NCBI GenBank assembly: GCA_963555705.1
Contig: OY743180.1
Location: forward strand, 39,526,129-39,590,128
DNA length: 64,000 bases
Direction: 5' to 3'
From: Ligustrum vulgare
Taxonomy: Eukaryota; Streptophyta; Magnoliopsida; Lamiales; Oleaceae
Shown here: piece by piece, positions 13,309 to 56,928 of the stretch
Numbering within the stretch: position 1 is the stretch's first letter
How the letters are laid out: the number at the start of each line of letters is the position of its first letter
Notes under the pieces: model-generated
Told to the model about the DNA's origin: nothing
What the model saw: only the letters and a program-made list of their open reading frames with translations
The model's database searches: none
Position numbers and translations under genes: made by a program

Positions 13309-13989
13309 ATGGCACTTGAAGCAATGAATTCTCAGACTACTCCGTTGCCGCCATTTCTGTTGGATAAAACCGGCATAAGTTCTTTTAGGCGGTTGATGAA
13401 GGATAAGCGATCAAGTCGACCACATAGCGTGGAACAAAAGGAAATGACTGAAGAAGAACATTTAGCTATTTGCCTTATGATGTTAGCTCATGGAGGCGGC
13501 CCAGCCACAACAGCCGCACCACTGCAGCCGCAAACTGAAACCCGTCTGCCATCAGACTCTTCGAAGGTTTTGTACAAGTGTTCGGTATGTGGCAAAGGTT
13601 TTGGATCTTACCAAGCTTTGGGAGGGCACAAGACGATTCATCGAAAGATAACTGGCGGCGGTGGTGGAAGCCAAGAATACTCCACAGTCTCTGCCTCCGC
13701 AACCACAACAAAGGGTGGCGGGACCCATAAGTGCTCCATCTGCCACAAGTGTTTCCCCACCGGCCAGGCCTTGGGAGGCCACAAAAGGCGGCACTATGAA
13801 GGAGGCCCCACTAGCAACGGCGGTGGAGCTGCCAGCAGTGCTATGACATCATCAGAACATGTACAGTCTACCGTTACTCACCGGGACTTTGACTTGAACC
13901 TGCCGGCGCTGCCACAATTCTGGCCTGGCTTTGGCTCAGGTGAAGAAGAAGTCGAAAGCCCTCATCCGGCAAAGAAACTTCGCCTTTAG
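13309..13989 (+). CDS. ZAT10: C2H2 zinc-finger repressor, ZAT10/STZ type
   Basis: Intact single-exon gene of 226 codons, the usual size for this family. It begins MALEAMNS, as ZAT10-like proteins do. A KDKRSSR basic patch (31-37) may be a nuclear localisation signal; the acidic-leucine L-box [12 protein letters not shown] follows at 48-59. Two plant-type C2H2 fingers carry the QALGGH signature: C91, C94, H107, H111 and C142, C145, H158, H162. An EAR repression motif DLNLPAL lies at 195-201 and the C-terminus ends with PAKKLRL. Family members are nuclear DNA-binding repressors induced by drought, salt, cold, wounding and high light. It is the only clearly intact ordinary host gene in the window. 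The start is the first ATG in frame, with strong N-terminal family similarity. It could be a ZAT6/ZAT10 paralogue rather than the strict orthologue. Confidence 0.93.
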
Positions 13990-33700: not shown

Positions 33701-34304
33701 GTCGAGTGAAGTGCTATAATGGTTATTTTGTGAATGGTTTCAAATTTCACACTTCAGATTATGGTCAATACAAGAAGACAATGAATAACGGTGTTTGTAT
33801 TTTGGGAAGTTGTTACAATGAGCAGATCGTGATTATTACGCCATTTTAACCGAGATTGTTGAGTTGGTATATTTTGGGTTCGGAAATACGGTTACATTAT
33901 TCAAATGTGATTGGTTTGACAACGAACGTGGAGTTCATGTGGATCAGCAACTCAACCTTGTGGAGGTCAACCATAGAAGAATAGTAGCATCACCTGATTG
34001 CTTCGTACTAGCCCAACAAGCTCAACAAGTATACTATACTAGTGTTGCTTCAACGCGTAGAGATAGACAAGATTGGTGGGCAGTTGTGAAGACCAAAGCT
34101 AGACATCTCACCCAAGTGGAAGGAGTCATATCAAGAGATCAAGAGATCAATTTATGGGTAGAATTTGCATTTCAAGACGATCGACCACCGTATGCTTTGT
34201 CACTCGTTTCTGATGCTTTGGAGTTAGATGTGCAACCATTGGTACAGAATGATGTCTATCCCAAAGAAGTAGATAGTGATGAAGTTACAACTGAGGGCAT
34301 GGTT
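30705..34304 (+). pseudogene. CACTA TNPD/TNP2 transposase, 5' part
   Basis: Start at 30705 (MEDDRSWMYARLGDG). Exon 1 (to 32971) has the transposase-associated Zn domain (CPCSRCGN), then the TNP2 core: WPGCVKHTKLSAMSQLLNYK, LRYLPLTPRLQRLYMS, LGLCTDGFNPFN (a catalytic Asp) and CHRRFLPHNHPFR. An in-frame TAA lies at 32034-32036. Exon 2 (33075-33392) carries DUF4218 (LPIHLPYEARVGGPVQYRWM spans the junction area; FLNHLKRKVKNRASVEGSIVEAY) with an in-frame TGA near 33257. Exon 3 is 33477-33573, exon 4 starts 33643. A frameshift near 33827-33849 separates it from the DUF4216 part (33864 on; TVTLFKCDWFD). All introns are GT-AG and keep frame. At 34304 the last exon is interrupted by a retrotransposon; it resumes at 43434. 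Confidence 0.9.
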
Positions 34305-34598
34305 TGTAGCAACCAAGAATTTTTACGCGATTAATAATTATTTTAATAGAAAATCGTGTCGCTACTATTTCACTCATTTTTATTAAGTTAACGCAGCGAC
34401 GTATTCGTATAGCCAAGTCAAGAAATAATCGAGATCGTTCGATTTTAAATTAAATTCCGAATTTCTAAAAATATCTCCATTTTCTTGATTTAAAGTATAT
34501 TAAGTCCAAATACTTAATTCAATGTTATCCCAATATTTATTTATACAAAAATTACTTTTATTATTTAAATTAAGAAAATATATGCAAGCATGAGAGGT

Positions 34599-35095
34599 TC
34601 CATTATATGTAATCATGAAGAGCATAATATTTGTATAAAAAATGGAAAAGTATATGAATGATTTATATACTCCATTATATATAATCATGAAGAGCATAAT
34701 ATTTGTATAAATATAGAAAAGTATATGAATGATTGATAGACTCCATTATATATAATCATGAAGAGCATAATATTTGTATAAATATGGAAAAGTATATGAA
34801 TGATTTATATACTCCATTATATATAATCATGAAGAGCATAATATTTGTATAAATATGGAAAAGTATATGAATGATTGATAAGACTCCATTATATGTAATC
34901 ATGAAGAGCATAATATTTGTATAAAAAATGGAAAAATATATGAATGATTTATATACTCCATTATATATAATCATGAAGAGCATAATATTTGTATAAATAT
35001 GGAAAAATATATGAATGATTGATAGACTCCATTATATATAATCATGAAGAGCATATTATTTGTATAAATATGGAAAAGTATATGAATGGTGCTTT
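34599..35095 (+). repeat. 71/72-bp tandem array, seven units (5' LTR)
   Basis: Units start TCCATTATAT at 34599, 34671, 34742, 34813, 34885, 34957 and 35028, spaced 71-72 bp. Each contains AATCATGAAGAGCATAATA. Alternate units carry 'gatttatata' and 'gattgataga', hinting at an older two-unit period. Repeated in the 3' LTR at 41339-41835. Confidence 0.95.
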
Positions 35096-35317
35096 ACTTT
35101 AAGAAAAGGATGTGTTAAAATTAATAGAATTGAATGATTATGTTTACAATATGCCAACTTTATACATCTATTTAAACCCATCTCTTTTACACACAACTCT
35201 ACACATATACACTTATTTCCAACCTCTTGACAAAATCCACAAGTAAGAGAAATTCAAGGTGGTCAAGAAAGTTTTGGTCCATTTACTACTACACTTCATT
35301 TTAATCTTTTAAAAGGT

Positions 35318-36235
35318 AAGTATATCTTATGTTTTTATGAAAATTAAGTATGTTGTTATGAAATGTAAGTATATCTTATGTTTTTATGAAAATTAAGTAT
35401 GTTGTTATGAAATGTAAGTATATCTTATGTTTTTATGAAAATTAAGTATGTTGTTATGAAATGTAAGTATATCTTATGTTTTTATGAAAATTAAGTATGT
35501 TGTTATGAAATGTAAGTATATCTTATGTTTTTATGAAAATTAAGTATGTTGTTATGAAATGTAAGTATATCTTATGTTTTTATGAAAATTAAGTATGTTG
35601 TTATGAAATGTAAGTATATCTTATGTTTTTATGAAAATTAAGTATGTTGTTATGAAATGTAAGTATATCTTATGTTTTTATGAAAATTAAGTATGTTGTT
35701 ATGAAATGTAAGTATATCTTATGTTTTTATGAAAATTAAGTATGTTGTTATGAAATGTAAGTATATCTTATGTTTTTATGAAAATTAAGTATGTTGTTAT
35801 GAAATGTAAGTATATCTTATGTTTTTATGAAAATTAAGTATGTTGTTATGAAATGTAAGTATATCTTATGTTTTTATGAAAATTAAGTATGTTGTTATGA
35901 AATGTAAGTATATCTTATGTTTTTATGAAAAGTAAGTATGTTTTTATGAAAGGTAAATACACCTTATGTTTTTATGAAAAGTAAGTATGTTTTTATGACA
36001 AGTAAGTATATCTTATGTTTTTATGAAAAGTAAGTATGTTTTTATGAAAGGTAAATACACCTTATGTTTTTATGAAAAGTAAGTATGTTTTTATGACAAG
36101 TAAGTATATCTTATATTTTTATGAAAAGTAAGTATGTTTTTATGAAAGGTAAATACACCTTATGTTTTTATGAAAAGTAAGTATGTTTTTATGACAAGTA
36201 AGTATATCTTATGTTTTTATGAAAATGTTTGGATC
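35318..36235 (+). repeat. 49-bp tandem array, 12 + 3x98 bp (5' LTR)
   Basis: Twelve identical 49-bp units (starts every 49 bases from 35318 to 35857) beginning AAGTATATCTTATGTTTTTA. They are followed by three 98-bp units (from 35906, 36004, 36102), each two diverged 49-mers, and a partial copy at 36200. Confidence 0.97.
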
Positions 36236-36739
36236 ATTGCTATGAAATCAATCTCACAAGATTGTTATGGGTTCCATATGATATGTTTATGATTATGCTA
36301 AGGGGACCGGAGTTTAGTAGCGCTACACATAAGAATTCTTGCCATTTAAGTTCGGTAAAATTCTTGTGTCTCCCTATGTTTATGAATATTTCAATCCTAT
36401 CCTATGTTATGATGAAAATGATCCATATGCATTCAAAAGAAAATTTATGCTTGGTATACTTACTGGGATTTTATAAATCTCACTCCACGATATTTACCAT
36501 TTTCAGATAATTGAAGGTTCGAGGCGGTCAACATGGAAGTGGCAAAAGTGGTTAAGATTGATGAGATAATTATGTTGAACTTTATGTAAGAAAATTATGT
36601 TCTATTTTTATTCACAAATAAAATTATGGGATTCTAATTATTCTTTTGAATAATTTTACATTACTATTTAAGTCTCGATAATATGATATGAGTCACTTTT
36701 AGTGGCACTCGAATGGTCGAGAATTCGGGTCGTCACAGT

Positions 36740-36755
36740 TGGTATCAGAGCCAGG
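36740..36755 (+). other. Primer-binding site of the LARD-like element
   Basis: TGGTATCAGAGCCAGG, two bases after the 5' LTR; complementary to initiator tRNA-Met. Confidence 0.9.
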
Positions 36756-38290
36756 TTTTAAAAACGATTCTGTAGATTTTTGAAATTTTATTTCTTAAAA
36801 AAAAAAAAAAAAAAAATTGAATTTTCACATGTCAAGTATGGTTATGATTTTGAAAAGTATGATGAAATTTGGTGTGCGAATTTCAAGGACAAAATTCATT
36901 TTAAGCAAGGGAGTTTGTAATGTTCTGAAGATTTTATGGAATATAATTAGTTAGTGATATGATGTTTATATTGATGTCTTTGATAAATTTCTAGAAGTTC
37001 GGGGACTAAAGGAAAATAAGATTTGACGATAAAATTTTATTTGGGTTAATTAGGCCCAATCTTATGTAAAGATGCGAAATGATTAATAATAATTTTTTTT
37101 TAAAATATTTTAACTCATCACTCTACTATGTCACTCTCCACGTATTGACTCCTCGAACCAGGTATGTTATATGCTTTGCAAGTCATTTACGATTTTATTA
37201 AGACATGTTAAGTATGAAATATTCATATGTTATGAATCTTTAAGTGAAATATACATGTTGAGTATGATATGAATTGATAGAAGCCTAAATTTTAATTTAT
37301 TCATTTTAATGTAGAATCATGAGACATAGAGGATATTGATATGAATTTTGGTTCATATTAAGCTTAGTAAGATTGACTCAATTAGAAATTAAGTTGGGTT
37401 GTAACTTTGGCCCAAAATATATGGAATAATATATTAAACAAACAAAATTGATAATGAATTGTACAATAATTTATCCCTTTATCACTACCTTTGTGTAAAA
37501 ACAAGGGAAAAACTGTGGATGGTTATTAGTACTTCCTCTTCAAGTTTCAATTTTCGGTTCAATAATTTATCCCTTTATCACTACCTTTGCTTAAAAGCAA
37601 GGAAAAACTGTGGATGATTATTGGTACCACTCTTCAAGTTTCAATTTTGAAAAAAAAAATAAAAAAATATGATTTACGAATGATTTTCAAAATAATCTTT
37701 GTCGTCAAGTTTAGAAATGATGAGCCCTAAATGGACTTTGCATAATTGATTTTAGACATGGCACTAAGTATGAGAAGTCAACAGAAAGGACTAGATAATA
37801 TTTTCGAATTATTCATCGTTTAGATTAAACGAGAAATAGAAAGTCAGTTTTATGAAGTTATGATGAGATGTTGAGATTATAAGTGATATGATTTTATTGA
37901 GATTTTTATGAGAAGAATTATGAAGTTGGAGATTTAAAGTTTAGGCTCTTAATTATTGAGAAATAAGGACTTGATATGGTGATATTAGAAATTATGATTT
38001 GAAATTTCTATGTTGAGGAATTATGAATTGATTTTCTGGAATATTTATGATGATATTGAAGTTTGATGAAATTGTGATCAAATGTACAATTAGTTATTAT
38101 TGTGAGTTATGAAGTATGCTTACGATTTGGATAAGTCCAAATTTCAAAGGAAAACTCTGCCTAGAATTTTATCGTTTGGAGTTAAGAGCATAGTATGATA
38201 TGCAATCACTAAGAGAATTGAAGTTAGACATACAAGTTCATTTACATCACAAACGAGATTTAGTAGATGATAACAGAGATATTATTATTT
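36756..38290 (+). other. Non-coding interior of the LARD-like element, left part
   Basis: AT-rich. A poly(A) run is at 36798-36817. At 36881-36915 'tttcaaggac...ttaagcaagggag' copies the element's own pre-LTR block (41011-41044, 'tttcgaggac...ttaagggggtaag') and is followed by TGTAATGTTCTGAAGA, which looks like the start of another Ty3 LTR. A 96-bp tandem duplication lies at 37464-37649. No gag or pol similarity in any frame. Confidence 0.55.
37464..37649 (+). repeat. 96-bp tandem duplication
   Basis: Two copies starting CAATAATTTATCCCTTTATC at 37464 and 37560, both ending near TCAAGTTTCAATTTT; several substitutions and small indels separate them. Confidence 0.85.
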
Positions 38291-38390
38291 TCTCATAAGG
38301 AGAACACACAAGAGTCACCCTAGAAAGGAAATACATGAAAACACGCAAAAGCAAAAGAAAGCAACATGGGAAATTCCTCAAATTGAGAGA

Positions 38391-38599
38391 TGTGTTTCCG
38401 GAGTAGCCGTATCCTACCACCTCTGACCTTTTGAGGAAATAAAGAAACCTTCAAAAAGGTGTGTTTCGAGAGTAAGAATACTCCGTAATCTACCACCTGG
38501 AACCTTTGAGGTACACACAAGATTTAAACATTAAGGAAAATCCTAGGAAATTAGAGGGGTGTCTCGAGAGTAAGAATACTCCGTACTCTACCCCCACCT
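38391..38599 (-). repeat. Three hairpin-bearing repeats downstream of LOG
   Basis: Copies at 38391-38422, 38460-38498 and 38556-38599 share the pattern GTGT(T)TCGAGAGTAAGAATAC, TCCGTA and CTACC. Copies two and three contain GAGTA-AGAA-TACTC, a 5-bp stem with a 4-base loop, and copy three has an outer GGGGT/ACCCC pairing. On the LOG strand they begin 11 bp after its stop codon, so they would fold in the 3' untranslated region. Confidence 0.7.
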
Positions 38600-38609
38600 A
38601 TTCTAAGAT

Positions 38610-39263
38610 TCATAAAGTTAAGTTTACATTAACCGGACTCCATTTTCGCTTGATTCCCCTTCCTTGCGACCAATCTATCTTAACCCCTGCTGGATCTTGT
38701 ATTGAGATATATGACTGCAGCTTATCCAGTAGTTCATCAATAGTAGGAGCAGAAATAAGAAGCCTTCTGGAAAATGGAGAGATGAATCCCTGTTCCACAG
38801 CATAATCAAGAAAGGTTAACAAGCCATCAAAGAAATTGTTAACATTCAAAAGCCCAATAGGCTTAGTATGGAGATCTAGTTGAGCCCATGAGGTAATGTT
38901 AAAGATTTCTTCTAAGGTACCAAAACCTCCGGGCAGGGCTATAAAGGCATCAGAACCATATAGCATACAAGTTATGCGTTCATGGATGGATAAGGTTTGA
39001 ACTTCATGCCCTCGTGTTTTTCCTGCAACATCTACCAAAGGGACAGGTATGACACCGATTACTTTTGATTTCTCTGCAAGAGCAGATTGGGAAACACAAC
39101 CCATTAGACCACTGCTACCACCCCCATACACAAGAGTGATACCTTTTTCCCCCAGTTTCTTTCCAAGATCTACGGCCGCTTCTAGATAACTGAAGCCTTT
39201 CCCCACTTTTGATCCACAAAATACACAAATAGTTTTGATCTGTCGAAGTTTTGGTGCTTCCAT
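38610..39263 (-). CDS. LOG: LOG-like cytokinin riboside 5'-monophosphate phosphoribohydrolase, intronless
   Basis: Intact frame of 217 codons on the strand opposite to the host retrotransposon. LOG enzymes release active cytokinin bases from their riboside 5'-monophosphates, in cytosol and nucleus. Seen here: a Rossmann-type start TICVFCGSKVGK (11-22), LVYGGGSSGLMG (44-55), HERITCM (94-100; family members usually have HERKAEM) and the signature PGGFGTLEE (111-119) with the catalytic Glu119; Arg96 is the other likely catalytic residue. WAQLDLHTKPIGLLNV (126-141) is also typical. The C-terminal tail after about 195 is basic and not family-like. Plant LOG genes normally have several introns, so an uninterrupted 654-bp frame points to a retrocopy. 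A TTTAAATA box lies about 80 bp upstream. The start is the first ATG, in the family position. Confidence 0.88.
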   Translation of the reverse strand: MEAPKLRQIKTICVFCGSKVGKGFSYLEAAVDLGKKLGEKGITLVYGGGSSGLMGCVSQSALAEKSKVIGVIPVPLVDVAGKTRGHEVQTLSIHERITCMLYGSDAFIALPGGFGTLEEIFNITSWAQLDLHTKPIGLLNVNNFFDGLLTFLDYAVEQGFISPFSRRLLISAPTIDELLDKLQSYISIQDPAGVKIDWSQGRGIKRKWSPVNVNLTL

Positions 39264-39572
39264 CTTTGATAGTATAGAAGAGAAAACTTACCAAGAAGAT
39301 GTGATTTTGGGATGCTTGAACTATGAAATATGTTTGGCTATTTAAAGCCGGAAAAATTTACTGTTTTTGATTGATTCTGAAAAAGTAAAGATTTACTTTT
39401 GACAAAATCAGCCTACTTTTGACTATTTTATCAAAGCTTTCATCTTTCGGTGATTTATTTTCCAGCTTTATCAAACCTCGAGAAAGGAAAATATATTTTA
39501 CCAACCTTTATCAAAACGCGTGAAAGGAAACAGAAGAATATTTTAAATATGTATCAAGAGATTTACCTTATA
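39264..39572 (-). promoter_or_regulatory. Spacer upstream of LOG, promoter-like
   Basis: On the LOG strand it has GGCTTTAAATAGCC (about 39337-39350), a palindromic TATA-like box about 80 nt before the ATG, and three TTTGATAAA(G) motifs between about 39430 and 39520. A GGTAAGTTTT sequence close before the ATG resembles a splice donor, but no intron is needed by the reading frame. Confidence 0.4.
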
Positions 39573-40118
39573 TCAATGCTGATTTGCCACAACCTCATTG
39601 TGTAAAACAGACTGGCAGATAGGATCTTTTGCAGTTATATTTTTGAGACTATAACGATTTTTGTCTTCGTTAAACTGAGCGTATAAGGAGAGAAGTTCAC
39701 GTTGCACATAACCACTTGGGTGCGTCTCAAGAGTCAGTCGAATATCATCCAAAGACTCCTTACTCAGTCCACCCTTTATGAATTTGATTTTATCATCCCG
39801 ATTAGTAGAAGAATATCCTACTGTTTTGCAACGAGTATCACAGTTCCAACGAGCACATTTGTAGCAACCATTCAGCCTTTTTGCTCTTCGTTTCTTTGCG
39901 AAGGTGCTTTTGCCTAAACCAGGCATGTGCTTTGGAAATGTCATAGGTAATTCACCAGATAATCAAACTTTTGCTTCGATCAACCAGCGAACATCTTCTG
40001 GAATACCATGAGCCATCAGCAACCTCAACCTTTCGAGCCTAATTCGATAAATTTTTCTCAGATCATTCATAGGAAGATTGGAATAATACTTGCGAATGTT
40101 TGAAAGGATGATATCCAT
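39573..40118 (-). pseudogene. Virus-like nucleic-acid-binding protein (Betaflexiviridae type), one stop
   Basis: Two in-frame segments separated by a single TGA (39963-39965): 51 codons from ATG 40118, and 123 codons from ATG 39944 to 39573. The second has the hallmark of the small nucleic-acid-binding protein at the 3' end of carla-, viti- and related betaflexivirus genomes: a basic arm GKSTFAKKRRAKRL (11-24) directly before a Cys cluster C27-x2-C30-x4-C35-x3-C39, then a D-x-x-x-F-x-K-G segment (51-58). The first segment resembles the helical N-terminal part of such proteins. In viruses they bind RNA and suppress host silencing. It is read on the same strand as LOG and precedes it by 310 bp. 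A host Cys-rich protein of unknown type remains possible. Confidence 0.55.
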
Positions 40119-41010
40119 TTTTGATGGATCTAACCTCTTCCCAACATGATCTATTTAAAGGTATAAAGGAACTAAGTGGATCCATCTGATATTGATTCCA
40201 GCAAGAAAGCGCGGAATAGAATAATGAAAAGAAGAGACAAGAATTAATGCGCTGTTTAATTTTATCGATAAAGGAAGATTTGATGATAAGATTTTGAGAT
40301 ACAGAATATTTTCTTGGATTTGGTACTGATATTTTAGGTATAATAATAAGTAATTAAGGTATGGTGTGATGATACGGGAATACGTGAAAGTGAAATAAGG
40401 ACCGTATCGAATCAGAATTCATAAGTATGTACAAGTGAAAGAAATACCTTGCGGGAAATGTTGTGACAATTAAGTGAAGAATTTTAGTTATTTGGGAGCT
40501 AATTATTTATTTGAATTTTGCAGAACGTTTTGGTTACAAATATGGGAAAAGATAAGCTGATGATATTATGTTGATTTATGAATAATATGTTTGGATATAT
40601 TACATAGGGGATATTCAGGTAACCATTTTATTTACTTTGGGATATTTGGTGATAAGAAGAAATGACTAATTATTATGGTATGATATGTTAGTAAAGATTT
40701 ATTGAAATTTTAGAGATATTAATACGAATATTTGAGGTCACATGATACGATGATAAGTGACAGGTTACATGAGTACTACAAGACATGATAAAATATCACA
40801 TACGATTGGGAATTTTCCTTTTGAGTCAGAATTTATGAGTAGACACATATGTCTATTATTGATAGAAAAGTCCATGTTTTTAAGAAAAACAAAGATATGC
40901 ATTTAGTCAAAGTCCAGTGGGTTAAATATAGTAGCAATGATACTACATAAGAGAAGAAGAGAAGAGATTCTGATTAAGTGTTCAGAAATCATAAGATCAA
41001 GTAAGTTTAA
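40119..41010. other. Right interior of the LARD-like element
   Basis: On the minus strand a second TTTAAATAG box (about 40150-40160) lies about 35 nt upstream of the virus-like frame, paralleling the one before LOG. Coding-like composition fades by about 40260. The remainder is AT-rich, typical non-coding LARD interior. Confidence 0.45.
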
Positions 41011-41044
41011 TTTCGAGGACGAAATTATTTTAAGGGGGTAAGTT
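41011..41044 (+). other. Polypurine tract of the LARD-like element
   Basis: 'tttcgaggacgaaattattttaagggggtaagtt' is the block that commonly precedes the 3' LTR of plant Ty3 elements; the GGGGG tract primes plus-strand synthesis. Confidence 0.8.
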
Positions 41045-43428
41045 TGTAGCAACCAAGAATTTTTACGCGATTAATAATTATTTTAATAGAAAATCGTGTC
41101 GCTACTATTTCACTCATTTTTATTAAGTTAACGCAGCGACGTATTCGTATAGCCAAGTCAAGAAATAATCGAGATCGTTCGATTTTAAATTAAATTCCGA
41201 ATTTCTAAAAATATCTCCATTTTCTTGATTTAAAGTATATTAAGTCCAAATACTTAATTCAATGTTATCCCAATATTTATTTATACAAAAATTACTTTTA
41301 TTATTTAAATTAAGAAAATATATGCAAGCATGAGAGGTTCCATTATATGTAATCATGAAGAGCATAATATTTGTATAAAAAATGGAAAAGTATATGAATG
41401 ATTTATATACTCCATTATATATAATCATGAAGAGCATAATATTTGTATAAATATAGAAAAGTATATGAATGATTGATAGACTCCATTATATATAATCATG
41501 AAGAGCATAATATTTGTATAAATATGGAAAAGTATATGAATGATTTATATACTCCATTATATATAATCATGAAGAGCATAATATTTGTATAAATATGGAA
41601 AAGTATATGAATGATTGATAAGACTCCATTATATGTAATCATGAAGAGCATAATATTTGTATAAAAAATGGAAAAATATATGAATGATTTATATACTCCA
41701 TTATATATAATCATGAAGAGCATAATATTTGTATAAATATGGAAAAATATATGAATGATTGATAGACTCCATTATATATAATCATGAAGAGCATATTATT
41801 TGTATAAATATGGAAAAGTATATGAATGGTGCTTTACTTTAAGAAAAGGATGTGTTAAAATTAATAGAATTGAATGATTATGTTTACAATATGCCAACTT
41901 TATACATCTATTTAAACCCATCTCTTTTACACACAACTCTACACATATACACTTATTTCCAACCTCTTGACAAAATCCACAAGTAAGAGAAATTCAAGGT
42001 GGTCAAGAAAGTTTTGGTCCATTTACTACTACACTTCATTTTAATCTTTTAAAAGGTAAGTATATCTTATGTTTTTATGAAAATTAAGTATGTTGTTATG
42101 AAATGTAAGTATATCTTATGTTTTTATGAAAATTAAGTATGTTGTTATGAAATGTAAGTATATCTTATGTTTTTATGAAAATTAAGTATGTTGTTATGAA
42201 ATGTAAGTATATCTTATGTTTTTATGAAAATTAAGTATGTTGTTATGAAATGTAAGTATATCTTATGTTTTTATGAAAATTAAGTATGTTGTTATGAAAT
42301 GTAAGTATATCTTATGTTTTTATGAAAATTAAGTATGTTGTTATGAAATGTAAGTATATCTTATGTTTTTATGAAAATTAAGTATGTTGTTATGAAATGT
42401 AAGTATATCTTATGTTTTTATGAAAATTAAGTATGTTGTTATGAAATGTAAGTATATCTTATGTTTTTATGAAAATTAAGTATGTTGTTATGAAATGTAA
42501 GTATATCTTATGTTTTTATGAAAATTAAGTATGTTGTTATGAAATGTAAGTATATCTTATGTTTTTATGAAAATTAAGTATGTTGTTATGAAATGTAAGT
42601 ATATCTTATGTTTTTATGAAAAGTAAGTATGTTTTTATGAAAGGTAAATACACCTTATGTTTTTATGAAAAGTAAGTATGTTTTTATGACAAGTAAGTAT
42701 ATCTTATGTTTTTATGAAAAGTAAGTATGTTTTTATGAAAGGTAAATACACCTTATGTTTTTATGAAAAGTAAGTATGTTTTTATGACAAGTAAGTATAT
42801 CTTATATTTTTATGAAAAGTAAGTATGTTTTTATGAAAGGTAAATACACCTTATGTTTTTATGAAAAGTAAGTATGTTTTTATGACAAGTAAGTATATCT
42901 TATGTTTTTATGAAAATGTTTGGATCATTGCTATGAAATCAATCTCACAAGATTGTTATGGGTTCCATATGATATGTTTATGATTATGCTAAGGGGACCG
43001 GAGTTTAGTAGCGCTACACATAAGAATTCTTGCCATTTAAGTTCGGTAAAATTCTTGTGTCTCCCTATGTTTATGAATATTTCAATCCTATCCTATGTTA
43101 TGATGAAAATGATCCATATGCATTCAAAAGAAAATTTATGCTTGGTATACTTACTGGGATTTTATAAATCTCACTCCACGATATTTACCATTTTCAGATA
43201 ATTGAAGGTTCGAGGCGGTCAACATGGAAGTGGCAAAAGTGGTTAAGATTGATGAGATAATTATGTTGAACTTTATGTAAGAAAATTATGTTCTATTTTT
43301 ATTCACAAATAAAATTATGGGATTCTAATTATTCTTTTGAATAATTTTACATTACTATTTAAGTCTCGATAATATGATATGAGTCACTTTTAGTGGCACT
43401 CGAATGGTCGAGAATTCGGGTCGTCACA
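41045..43428 (+). repeat. 3' LTR of the LARD-like element
   Basis: 2384 bp. It matches the 5' LTR throughout apart from having 11 rather than 12 units of the first 49-bp array (array 42058-42926). The 71/72-bp array is at 41339-41835. Confidence 0.93.
42058..42926 (+). repeat. 49-bp tandem array, 11 + 3x98 bp (3' LTR)
   Basis: Eleven 49-bp units starting at 42058, then the three 98-bp units from 42597, as in the 5' LTR but one unit shorter. Confidence 0.96.
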
Positions 43429-43646
43429 TGGTTGGTATTGAAGAGTTAGCACAAGATAGCGAGGGAGACAGTGACACACATGAATATGAAGAAAAAACTG
43501 ACACAGAGGACGTAGAAGAGGAGGTATGTTCTAAATAAAACATGGAGTTTTTTTATTAGATTAATGTTAATTAGTCACGATTCATACAGTGTATTGTTGC
43601 TATTTTTTAAAGTGAAATATTTTCTTATCTATAGAACGACTATTGA
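43429..43646 (+). pseudogene. CACTA TNPD transposase, 3' end
   Basis: Continues the transposase exon after the retrotransposon: the target duplication TGGTT is followed by GIEELAQDSEGDSDTHEYEEK and an acidic tail to a GAG|GTATGT donor at 43524. The acceptor TTATCTATAG leads to a last exon AACGACTATTGA (43635-43646), giving the C-terminus EENDY. Without the insertion the DUF4216 exon would be open across the junction. Confidence 0.85.
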
Positions 43647-54449: not shown

Positions 54450-56928
54450 ATGTTAAGAAGGACTAAGTCATTTGATTTGCTTCCTTTTGATACAGAAATT
54501 GAACGCACTTTTCGACAGAGGCGTAGACAACAGTTGGAAGCGAATCAACAAACAGACTTAGCCATGGCAGATGATAGGATTCAAGATAATCAGGGAAATC
54601 AACAAAATCTGCCAGCAGCTGTAAATGGACAGCAACAAAATCATGGAATGCGTGTTTTGCGAGACTACATGATTCCTCCTGTGGGGAACATTGGAACATG
54701 CATAGTACCTCCTGCAATCCAAGCTAACAATTTTGAGATCAAAACCTCTTTGATCTCACTGATCCAAAACTCATGTGTTTTCCATGGATTGCCGACTGAA
54801 GATCCTCATGCACATCTTCGATCCTTTTTGGAATTGTGTGAAATGCAGCACATGAATGGAGTTTCAGAAGATGCTGTGAAATTGAATTTATTTTCATTCT
54901 CTTTGGCAGACAAAGCTAAAACTTGGTTCTACACTTTGCCCCTACATACAATCACAACTTTTGAAATTATGAGTCAGAAATTTGTAGATAAATTTGTCCC
55001 ACCTGGCCGCATGTCAAAGCTAAGGCGTGAGATTTTATCATTCTGTCAACAACCTGGGGAATCAATTTTTGAGGCTTGGGAAAGGTTCAACGAGCTCATC
55101 GGACAGTGTCCTACACATGGAATCGCTGATTGGATACTAGTTCAAACATTCTACAATGGGCTGACAAATGAAAACAAGAAGTACGCCGACTCAGCAGCTG
55201 GAGGATCAGTAATGGATATGACATATGAAGAAGCTTCTGAGATTTTTGAGAAGATGGCTGCGAACAGTTACCAGTGGTACTCAGATAGATCTACACCAAA
55301 GTCTGAAGGAAGTTTGGAGTTAATGAGATTACAGCATTAAATGCTAAGCTGGATGCCTTAACAAGGAAAATCGACAGTATGGGTGTGCAGCCAGTGAATT
55401 CAGTTCATACAACTTTGTGTGATTTTTGTTTTGAAAATCACGCGATAAATTTCTGCCCACTTCAACAAAATCAATCAAACCCAGAGCAAGTCAATTTCAT
55501 GGGCAACAGGCAACAGGGTGGTCCTTATTCACAAACCTACAACCCAGAATGGAAGAACCACCCCAACTTCTCCTGGTCTAATAATCAAAATGTTCAGCAT
55601 CCGCCTGAATTTCAGCAACAGCAACAATCTCAAAAAAACATATCCGAAAACATAGAAGTGTTAATTCAGCTGGTCAAGAGTCAGAATGGTGAGATAATGA
55701 ATCAAGCTGCTGAAATAAAAAATTTGAAGAAACAGATGGGAGAGCTGGCAGCAAGCAGTTCAATAAGGCAGCCTGGACAGTTACCAAGCAACAATGAAAT
55801 GAACCCTCGTGAGCATGTTAATGCAATAACAACCAGAAGCGGGGTTCAGTTATCCGAAGTGAATGCAGAGGAATATGAAAAGCAGAAGAGCCAAAAGAAA
55901 GATGAGGTGGAAGAGGAAACAGGTGAAAAAGAACAGAGATCGACTCCTGAAGTTCAAGAAGAAGTTCGAGTTCGACCACCAGTCAAAGCTTATGTGCCCC
56001 CAGTTCCTTATCCACAACGATTGATAAAGCATAAGTTGGAGCAGCAGTTTGGAAAATTTTTGGAAATATTCAAGAAATTGTACATAAATATTCCTTTTGC
56101 CGAAACCTTGGCCCAAATGCCCCTCTACTTAAAGTTTATGAAGGAGATGCTGTCAAACAAAAGAAAGTTGGTTGATTTTGAGACAGTAGCACTGAGTGAG
56201 GAGTGGAGCGCCATACTTCAAAAGAAATTACCACAAAAATTGACCGATCCAGGGAGTTTCTCTATCCCTTGCACTATTGGTAATTTCACTTTTGATAATG
56301 TATTGTGTGACTTAGGGGCTAGTGTTAACCTAATGCCTTTGTCTGTATACAGGAAACTTGGTTTGGGGGAGCCTAAACCAACAAATATCACACTAAAACT
56401 TGCTAACAGGTCTATACAGTTTCCATATGGGATAGTGGAGAATGTGATTGTGAAAGTGGACAAGTTCTTCTTTCCAGTTGACTTTGTGATCCTTGATATG
56501 GAGGAGGACTCTCAGATGCCCTGATATTTGGAAGACCATTTCTTGCTACAGGGCGAGCTCTCATAGACATCGAAAAAGGGGAAATCATTTTTCGAGTCGA
56601 GCATGAACAAGTCAGTTTCAGCATCAAGCCAAGACAGAATCTCGAATATCTAAAGGAAAGTTGCTTCAAGGTGGAAGGAGTAATTCAGAAACCAGAAGAA
56701 AATGAGAAGCAAGGGATTAAGTTCGAGGAGGATCTAATCACAAAATATGAGTTCGTAAAGGAAAAAGATGGATGGAGGGACAAAAAGGAAGAAAAGCCGA
56801 ACATCCCTCAACACTTGGCTAAAAGTGAGGCTTTGGAATTCAAGAAAGTGAGAAAACGAATGGAGATATGCAAGGCAGGGAATTGCAAGAAATGCAAAGC
56901 CTCAAGAGGATCATTCAAGCCTCCATGA
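54450..56928 (+). pseudogene. Athila-like gag-protease with two frameshifts
   Basis: Frame one (54450-55340): MLRRTKSF, a Gln-rich stretch, then the gag capsid domain (about residues 95-260: LISLIQNSCVFHGLPTEDPH, LNLFSFSLADKAKTWFYTLP, FVDKFVPPGRMSKLRREI). A frameshift near 55315 moves homology (ITALNAKLDALTRKIDSM) into frame two (to 56524), with a zinc-knuckle-like CDFCFENHAINFC, a coiled coil, TTRSG and a retropepsin DLGASVNLMPLSVYRKLG. A second frameshift at 56520 leads to IFGRPFLATGRALIDIEKGE and a lysine-rich tail ending at 56928. Gag packages the RNA; the protease would cut gag-pol. With both shifts no full product is possible. Confidence 0.92.

What the first reader, a model, noticed from the sequence alone, without database searches (positions are those of the whole stretch)
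38610..39263. Intact intronless LOG gene riding inside an LTR retrotransposon
The sequence shows an undisturbed 217-codon LOG-like frame, antisense, in the interior of a 9.1-kb LTR element that lacks gag and pol. Family knowledge: LOG enzymes make active cytokinin and plant LOG genes contain introns. Inference: a LOG mRNA was reverse-transcribed into the element and is carried as cargo. The surrounding TNPD, TNPA, gag and FRS copies are all broken while this frame is intact, so it is either very recent or under selection. A transposon family that spreads a hormone-activating enzyme would be notable.
Basis: partly seen in the sequence, partly recalled or inferred. Interest (0 to 1): 0.85.

Follow-up and report, generated by a model that had tools for sequence, protein, structure and literature searches.

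The report
Jumping element carrying hormone-enzyme gene
A plant jumping element that has lost its own copying genes carries, on its reverse strand, an intact gene for a hormone-activating type of enzyme next to a gene resembling a plant-virus protein, and selection has kept the enzyme intact while the element spread across the genome.

Summary
Window 34305-43428 is a 9,124-bp LTR element with a perfect TSD and no gag/pol domain found. Its minus strand carries an intact 217-codon LOG frame. Three hairpin units follow LOG. The identical LOG protein is at 150 of 150 scored places in the genome (capped list). In copies chosen by NABP, not by LOG, LOG has pairwise pN/pS 0.05, and every change shared between copies is synonymous.

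Recent capture of a host LOG mRNA is not supported. This LOG belongs to a lineage well separated from the canonical LOGs sampled, with a changed base/prenyl pocket and, in 92 of 121 relatives, an LxLxL tail. NABP-LOG-hairpin also occurs in sense in Athila-type elements of the same genome, once after integrase. LOG-like frames in Athila-type elements are already published. I found no report of the NABP partner, the antisense move into another LTR family, or the selection signal (open-access library only). Function is inferred.

The parts
34305..36737 (+). 5' LTR (TGTAGC...GTCACA), with 49-bp and 71-bp tandem arrays inside
36740..36755 (+). primer binding site TGGTATCAGAGCCAGG, initiator-Met-tRNA type (assignment recalled)
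   Evidence: sequence
38386..38424 (-). third, most diverged hairpin unit downstream of LOG
38457..38499 (-). second hairpin unit
38553..38599 (-). first hairpin unit, just downstream of the LOG stop codon
38610..39263 (-). LOG-type phosphoribohydrolase gene, 217 codons, intact, intronless
39264..39572 (-). spacer between NABP and LOG; TATA-like TTTAAATAGCC before LOG (unproven promoter)
   Evidence: sequence
39573..40118 (-). NABP gene (carlavirus-type nucleic-acid-binding protein), 181-codon frame; interrupted by an in-frame stop at codon 52 in this copy, open frame 39573-39944 remains; open in 17 of 20 other fetched copies
41032..41044 (+). polypurine tract AAGGGGGTAAGTT
   Evidence: sequence
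41045..43428 (+). 3' LTR
34300..34304 (.). target-site duplication TGGTT, left copy
43429..43433 (.). target-site duplication TGGTT, right copy

Best explanation
This is a recently active, non-autonomous LTR retrotransposon family that carries an antisense two-gene cassette: NABP (virus-type nucleic-acid-binding protein), then LOG (phosphoribohydrolase type), then repeated hairpins. Shown: anatomy, spread, young insertions in the copies examined, linkage of the cassette in two element families, and purifying selection on LOG. Inferred: the module belongs to the 3' (env-position) gene region of Athila-type Ty3/gypsy elements and was moved in reverse orientation into this LTR family, where it spread using another element's gag-pol. 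Proposed mechanism (inference): the cassette is transcribed from its own minus-strand promoter; LOG releases an active base, most likely a cytokinin or a related nucleobase, and NABP damps RNA silencing or changes nuclear transcription, so that cells carrying the element become more permissive and more proliferative and its chance of reaching the germ line rises.
For: Element anatomy and TSD. Only LOG and NABP domains inside. 150 of 150 scored tblastn places identical over 217 aa without stops. TSDs in 18 of 21 copies examined; LTR pairs differ at 0-2 unique positions where both LTRs were rightly paired (these copies had been picked for LOG identity). In 20 copies chosen by NABP match and not by LOG, LOG is at the same place in 20 of 20 with no internal stop in the aligned part (19 full length, L050 over 627 of 654 bases). 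LOG: 24 synonymous changes (15 shared) against 11 non-synonymous (each in one sequence only), binomial p 3.5e-8; pairwise pN/pS 0.051. Catalytic R99 and E122 and PGGFGTLEE are kept in the window LOG (roles after PMC4979012, passages). Second family in the same genome: NABP-LOG-hairpin in sense, with an Athila-type PBS (L034, L035) or with integrase before and an Athila-type PPT after (L036). L031: integrase then NABP in sense. Three pairs of equal contig lengths in the LOG and NABP lists (8723, 4511, 2128 bp) suggest that the two genes share contigs elsewhere too (inferred from length alone).
Against: No expression data; no promoter shown. K100 and E125, which help to form the adenine/prenyl pocket in the bacterial LOG, are I and N here; the paper says that alanine at its AMP-binding and catalytic residues, one serine excepted, nearly abolished activity, but the passage seen does not list each mutant. 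So cytokinin activation is not assured. The window family's tail VNVNLTL is not a perfect LxLxL. NABP is under weaker constraint (pN/pS 0.30), and the window's own NABP is broken. The autonomous partner was not found. In the Athila-type copies the LOG has lost R99 and E122 and evolves near neutrality (pN/pS 0.85-0.96; NABP 0.43-1.23), so the module is not always kept. No LOG lies in the 3,330-base contig L031. The direction from Athila to this family is inferred.
Confidence: 0.55

Rival explanations
1. Recent retro-capture of a host LOG mRNA by the element.
For: Intronless frame inside an LTR element.
Against: Deep separation from the canonical LOGs sampled, pocket changes, and a shared NABP-LOG-hairpin module in another element family of the same genome. 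Limits: the canonical set was 120 LOG1/LOG3-like sequences plus AtLOG8 (14 plus AtLOG8 in the tree), not every host clade, and the host's own LOG genes were never obtained.
Confidence: 0.05
2. Neutral hitch-hiking: the frame is intact only because the copies are very young.
For: LTR pairs nearly identical; 20 of 20 fetched copies identical at DNA level over LOG, but those were picked for LOG identity.
Against: Copies diverged by about 4% at synonymous sites keep the protein (pN/pS 0.05; 15 shared synonymous against 0 shared non-synonymous changes). The Athila-type copies, a natural contrast, show 0.85-0.96.
Confidence: 0.1
3. The LOG protein is no longer a cytokinin enzyme but acts on other nucleotides, or as a nuclear scaffold whose basic/LxLxL tail recruits TOPLESS-type corepressors. 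(Overlaps with the main explanation, so the odds do not sum to one.)
For: K100 kept in 8 of 111 and E125 in 7 of 111 transposon-type LOGs against 108 of 108 each in canonical LOGs; LxLxL within the last 15 residues in 92 of 121 against 0 of 120. The tail is identical in 20 of 20 sequences (19 copies plus window) and predicted disordered. A pathogen effector uses a C-terminal EAR motif to bind TOPLESS (PMC7446885, passages).
Against: Catalytic residues are kept in the selected family (R99 107 of 111, E122 109 of 111 overall). The window tail lacks a perfect LxLxL. The same paper reports that none of ten other LxLxL effectors bound TPL, so the motif alone is not sufficient.
Confidence: 0.35
4. 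An endogenised RNA virus fragment: NABP and LOG came together from a betaflexivirus-like virus.
For: NABP matches Viral_NABP (1.1e-7) and Carla_C4 (2e-5).
Against: The module sits in LTR elements, once after integrase. No relative in the viral-contig scan, a collection that may hold few plant viruses. Of the 120 NABP relatives listed, 7 carry plant names, one a bacterial name and the rest none; no viral name is shown. LOG is not known to me in such viruses (recalled).
Confidence: 0.05

Closest known systems
LOG-like (YgdH/LOGL4) extra ORFs in Athila-type Ty3/gypsy elements (Steinbauerova et al. 2011; Citrus and Populus in PMC9289625)
   Same: LOG-type protein carried by plant LTR retrotransposons.
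   Different: Here the carrier has an initiator-Met-type PBS and no gag-pol, LOG is antisense, and it is paired with a NABP. The 2011 paper was not held and its LOGL4/Athila statement is recalled; PMC9289625 was seen as passages.
Antisense additional ORFs (aORF-3R) of Grande, RIRE2, Retand (review PMC7264820, first of three parts read)
   Same: Antisense conserved frame between the LTRs.
   Different: The review says that those frames lack similar genes outside TEs and similarity to other TEs or viruses; these two frames have such relatives.
Carlavirus nucleic-acid-binding protein (Pfam PF05515 / PF01623)
   Same: Basic stretch followed by a cysteine cluster, same Pfam families.
   Different: Part of a clade found in plant repeats; only part of the protein matches the viral profiles.
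ALKBH5-like m6A demethylase domain in orchid Ty3/gypsy elements (PMC9289625, passages)
   Same: Retrotransposon family with a fixed extra enzyme domain.
   Different: Different enzyme and element; no viral partner gene in the passages seen.

Membership tests
LTR retrotransposon, non-autonomous | two near-identical LTRs bounded by TG..CA | tested here: met
LTR retrotransposon, non-autonomous | target-site duplication | tested here: met
   5 bp in 18 of 21 copies; L015, L018 and L021 not scorable as run
LTR retrotransposon, non-autonomous | PBS and polypurine tract next to the LTRs | tested here: met
   tRNA assignment recalled
LTR retrotransposon, non-autonomous | no gag/pol | tested here: met
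   window copy only
LTR retrotransposon, non-autonomous | autonomous partner supplying gag-pol | tested here: inconclusive
   LTR search returned 40 of 40 scored places at 99-100% (822 candidates); a more distant partner could not appear, and the interiors of these places were not read
LOG cytokinin-activating phosphoribohydrolase | Lysine_decarbox fold and PGGxGTxxE motif with catalytic R and E | tested here: met
LOG cytokinin-activating phosphoribohydrolase | K100 and E125 of the adenine/prenyl pocket (CgLOG numbering) | tested here: not met
   I and N in the window LOG; 108 of 108 canonical LOGs with the anchor have K and E
LOG cytokinin-activating phosphoribohydrolase | release of free cytokinin base from the nucleotide | not testable with these tools
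   needs an assay
Carlavirus-type NABP | profile match with basic stretch plus cysteine cluster | tested here: met
   window part above both gathering scores; PF05515 in 17 of 17 and PF01623 in 16 of 17 aligned relatives at E 0.01
Carlavirus-type NABP | silencing suppression or nuclear transcription activity | not testable with these tools
   function in carlaviruses from PMC8839810, passages
Athila | Athila-type PBS (TTGGCGCCGTTGCCGGGGA) and integrase of that kind | tested here: not met
   the window element has a different PBS and no pol; L034 and L035 have the PBS, L036 the integrase; type signature recalled

The most novel reading that the evidence does not exclude
A plant retrotransposon 'oncogene-like' cassette: LOG raises a growth-promoting base and NABP blunts silencing or reprograms nuclear transcription, so the element steers its host cell towards division and meristem fate. 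It would be a plant counterpart of transforming retroviruses, with the gene pair maintained by selection on the element over long times and traded between LTR lineages.
Probability: 0.25. Interest if true: 0.93.

Novelty: new variant of a known kind. Interest (0 to 1): 0.76.

Why it matters
The review PMC7264820 (part read) calls the function of antisense extra genes in plant LTR elements unknown. Here is a pair with recognisable chemistry (LOG-family nucleotide hydrolase) and a recognisable virus-type partner, the enzyme kept by selection in many copies inside one genome, with a natural contrast (Athila-type copies whose LOG lost its catalytic residues and drifts). This makes 'what do retrotransposons gain from host-like genes' directly testable. 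It also suggests (inference, not tested) that some proteins annotated as plant LOGs are transposon genes, for example the many Reevesia copies.

Tried and rejected
Viral contigs: NABP alignment, 53 stretches matched and none was a relative; LOG alignment, 2 distant loci (L029, L030) not used further. Plasmids: no NABP match. Rfam: one chance-level tmRNA hit (E 0.58). The 281-nt fold of the region downstream of LOG is not more stable than shuffles (z -0.57); the single hairpin is supported only by recurrence and modest covariation (2 pairs with changes on both sides, which 264 of 500 shuffles also reach; covariation score reached by 3 of 500; 84% of cells paired against 35-65% when slid; 6 sequences). 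Splice-acceptor-like sites stand before NABP in L034, L035 and L036 and before LOG in L035 and L036; by the same scan none in L031, none before LOG in L034 and none in the window cassette. The idea that LOG is unusually conserved because 20 of 20 copies were identical was dropped, since those copies were chosen by LOG identity; replaced by the NABP-chosen set. In that set NABP is open in 20 of 20, but this is biased, because the copies were among the best-scoring NABP matches (150 of 8543 candidates scored). The autonomous partner and the host's own LOG genes were sought and not obtained. Dropped rows: L050 left out of the LOG counts and 6 of the 20 copies left out of the NABP counts because the aligned length differed; 10 of 121 transposon-type and 12 of 120 canonical LOGs lacked the anchor motif and were left out of the pocket counts; L032 is the same place as part of L034 and is not counted twice.

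Full report
Observation. The LOG frame 38610-39263 (-) is intact over 217 codons and matches Lysine_decarbox at 1.3e-33 and AtLOG3 (2a33) at 4.7e-58. It is antisense in an LTR element bounded at 34305 and 43428, with TGGTT duplicated on both sides, a PBS of initiator-Met type at 36740 (assignment recalled) and a polypurine tract before 41045. A six-frame domain scan of the internal region of this copy, stops read as X, finds LOG and NABP and nothing else at E 0.01.

The missed gene. Upstream of LOG on the same strand, 39573-40118 is a 181-codon frame of the carlavirus-type nucleic-acid-binding protein (Viral_NABP 1.1e-7, Carla_C4 2e-5 for the part open here). This copy has an in-frame stop at codon 52. 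Of 20 other fetched copies (L009-L028, picked for LOG identity) 16 have the frame open to the same end, one more (L019) is open over all 182 codons examined, and three (L009, L017, L026) are broken. A database search finds 236 related proteins; of the 120 listed, 7 carry plant names (Orobanche, Xanthoceras, Acer, Populus), one a bacterial name (probable contamination), the rest none. PF05515 matches 17 of 17 and PF01623 16 of 17 aligned members.

Spread and age. Of 21 copies examined (window plus L009-L028), 18 have a perfect 5-bp duplication; LTR pairs differ at 0-2 positions in up to about 800 non-repetitive bases, leaving aside L015 and L021, where the pairing was wrong or cut, and L018, which had no LTR match. 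Pairs and longer series about 6.5-7 kb apart (for example five at C23:10311325-10338630) suggest tandem arrays sharing LTRs. Several copies are mosaics: in L017, L018, L019 and L028 parts of the backbone are 81-95% alike to the window while LOG is identical; these copies had been picked for LOG identity.

Selection. To avoid that bias I took 20 copies, one on each of 20 contigs, from a search made with a NABP of another source (P0124). LOG is at the same place in 20 of 20, 97.2-98.8% identical to the window (L050 over 627 of 654 bases); NABP is at 92-93% and the spacer at 84-89%. NABP openness (20 of 20) is biased in this set, since it was drawn from the best NABP scores. Over 20 LOG sequences (19 copies plus window) there are 24 synonymous changes, 15 of them shared, and 11 non-synonymous, each in one sequence (the window itself differs from the rest at residue 25); pN/pS is 0.146 by distinct changes (binomial p 3.5e-8) and 0.051 pairwise. 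NABP (14 copies plus window; 6 dropped for length) gives 0.31 and 0.30. Purifying selection on LOG is thus seen at the level of the family; related sequences are not independent, so the p-value is a guide.

Where it comes from. Nine of the 150 scored NABP places stand apart at 70-73% identity to P0124, three of them with a stop. Of these I read L033, L034 (which contains L032), L035 and L036: in four of four NABP is followed by LOG on the same strand, LOG being 51-58% identical to the window's. L034 and L035 have a PBS TTGGCGCCGTTGCCGGGGA (Athila type, recalled), L035 with LTRs 99.7% identical over 1993 bp and no pol match; L036 has an integrase stretch 62.6% identical over 257 aa to that of L031, then NABP, LOG and TTTGGGGGGTGTGATAAGTG. 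L031 is plant DNA inside a record labelled as a bacterial MAG and has integrase, then NABP, in sense; it holds no LOG match. About 220-270 bases after the LOG stop, L034 (two copies), L035 and L036 (one each) carry a hairpin, in L034 and L036 GATGGCAGAGTACGGAGTTTTACACTCTCGAGACGCATTC, whose relatives stand three times after LOG in the window. So NABP, LOG and the hairpin form a module of the 3' region of Athila-type elements; its reverse insertion into the window's LTR family is inferred. In L034-L036 LOG has lost R99 and E122 (IHES; LEQ), and pN/pS among the three is 0.85, 0.89 and 0.96 (NABP 1.23, 0.43, 0.73): a decaying contrast to the selected window family.

What kind of LOG. Residue roles are from PMC4979012 (passages). 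Among 111 of 121 transposon-type sequences with the anchor motif, R99 is kept in 107 and E122 in 109, but K100 in 8 and E125 in 7, nearly always together. 'Transposon-type' means the window LOG and its 120 best database relatives; that each of these lies in a transposon was not shown. Among 108 of 120 canonical LOGs with the anchor, K100 and E125 are kept in 108 of 108. LxLxL within the last 15 residues occurs in 92 of 121 against 0 of 120. The window LOG has I and N at the two pocket positions and ends VNVNLTL, an imperfect version. The canonical set was drawn with AtLOG3 and adds AtLOG8 only, so other host clades are not excluded. In a 46-row tree the 15 canonical rows lie beyond a branch of 0.9 changes per column (100/100); three Xanthoceras rows (P0002, P0092, P0117), which keep K100 and E125, fall nearest to them, and the window pairs with P0001, then with P0004-P0006 (P0005 is annotated in Diospyros). 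The AlphaFold model is confident for most of the core and disordered at 201-217 (mean pLDDT 80.6); the tail is identical in 20 of 20 sequences.

Mechanism. Shown: two genes travel together, LOG is selected, the carrier is young and no gag/pol was found in it. Inferred: they are expressed from the minus strand; LOG makes a free base, probably a cytokinin or relative; NABP acts as in carlaviruses, where such proteins are described as silencing suppressors, one with a nuclear signal being linked to cell proliferation (PMC8839810, passages). A cassette combining a growth-signal enzyme with a silencing or transcription modulator would benefit an element that must transpose in dividing, germ-line-destined cells. 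The puzzle left is how selection sees one copy among so many; cis action or selection among source elements are possibilities.

Literature. LOG-type domains in plant LTR elements are known: PMC9289625 (passages) reports the YgdH domain in two Citrus species and, with a filter disabled, in Populus trichocarpa, citing Steinbauerova 2011 (not held). Antisense extra ORFs are reviewed in PMC7264820 (part 1 of 3 read). Searches combining retrotransposon with carlavirus (no paper), Athila with lysine decarboxylase (no paper), Athila with carlavirus (one paper on viral proteases, listing only), and retrotransposon with LONELY GUY (one and four papers, listings) showed no report of the NABP-LOG pair; PMC11728184 (passages) describes other extra ORFs in sunflower. 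The library lacks most subscription papers.

Noticed in passing
window 38386-38599 (-); L034, L035, L036 downstream of LOG: Repeated hairpin element conserved after LOG in two element families whose LOG proteins are only about half identical; no Rfam family matched in the window stretch searched (36000-43000).
   Followed up: partly
L034, L035, L036: Athila-type LOG copies have lost both catalytic residues, yet L034 and L035 keep a C-terminal LDLELRL; pN/pS near 1.
   Followed up: partly
L031 (DAIEQH010000041.1); P0193: Plant retrotransposon DNA inside records labelled Candidatus Nomurabacteria and Clostridioides difficile: probable contamination.
   Followed up: no
G000 C23:10311325-10338630, C22:1306460-1326780, C13:30457863-30485204: Series of up to five NABP copies about 6.6-6.7 kb apart, as if tandem elements shared LTRs between units.
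   Followed up: no
window about 35160-36340 and 41900-43080: The LTRs carry long arrays of a 49-bp unit and, before them, a shorter 71-bp repeat; the two LTRs of the window copy differ by one 49-bp length.
   Followed up: no
L017, L018, L019, L028: Mosaic copies with diverged backbones around an identical LOG block, suggesting recombination or template switching between subfamilies.
   Followed up: partly
window 13309-13989 (+): Intact 226-codon C2H2 zinc-finger frame (two zf-C2H2_6 stretches) with DLNLP near its end, ZAT-like (name recalled).
   Followed up: no
window 54450-56524 (+): Two long open frames of a gag-like region (Retrotrans_gag 4.3e-20 in the first; the second not scanned); Athila type by recall.
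   Followed up: no
genome G000: Contigs C1-C23 appear in the hits; those whose length is given are of chromosome size (38.6-100 Mb), which would fit n = 23; species not identified.
   Followed up: no
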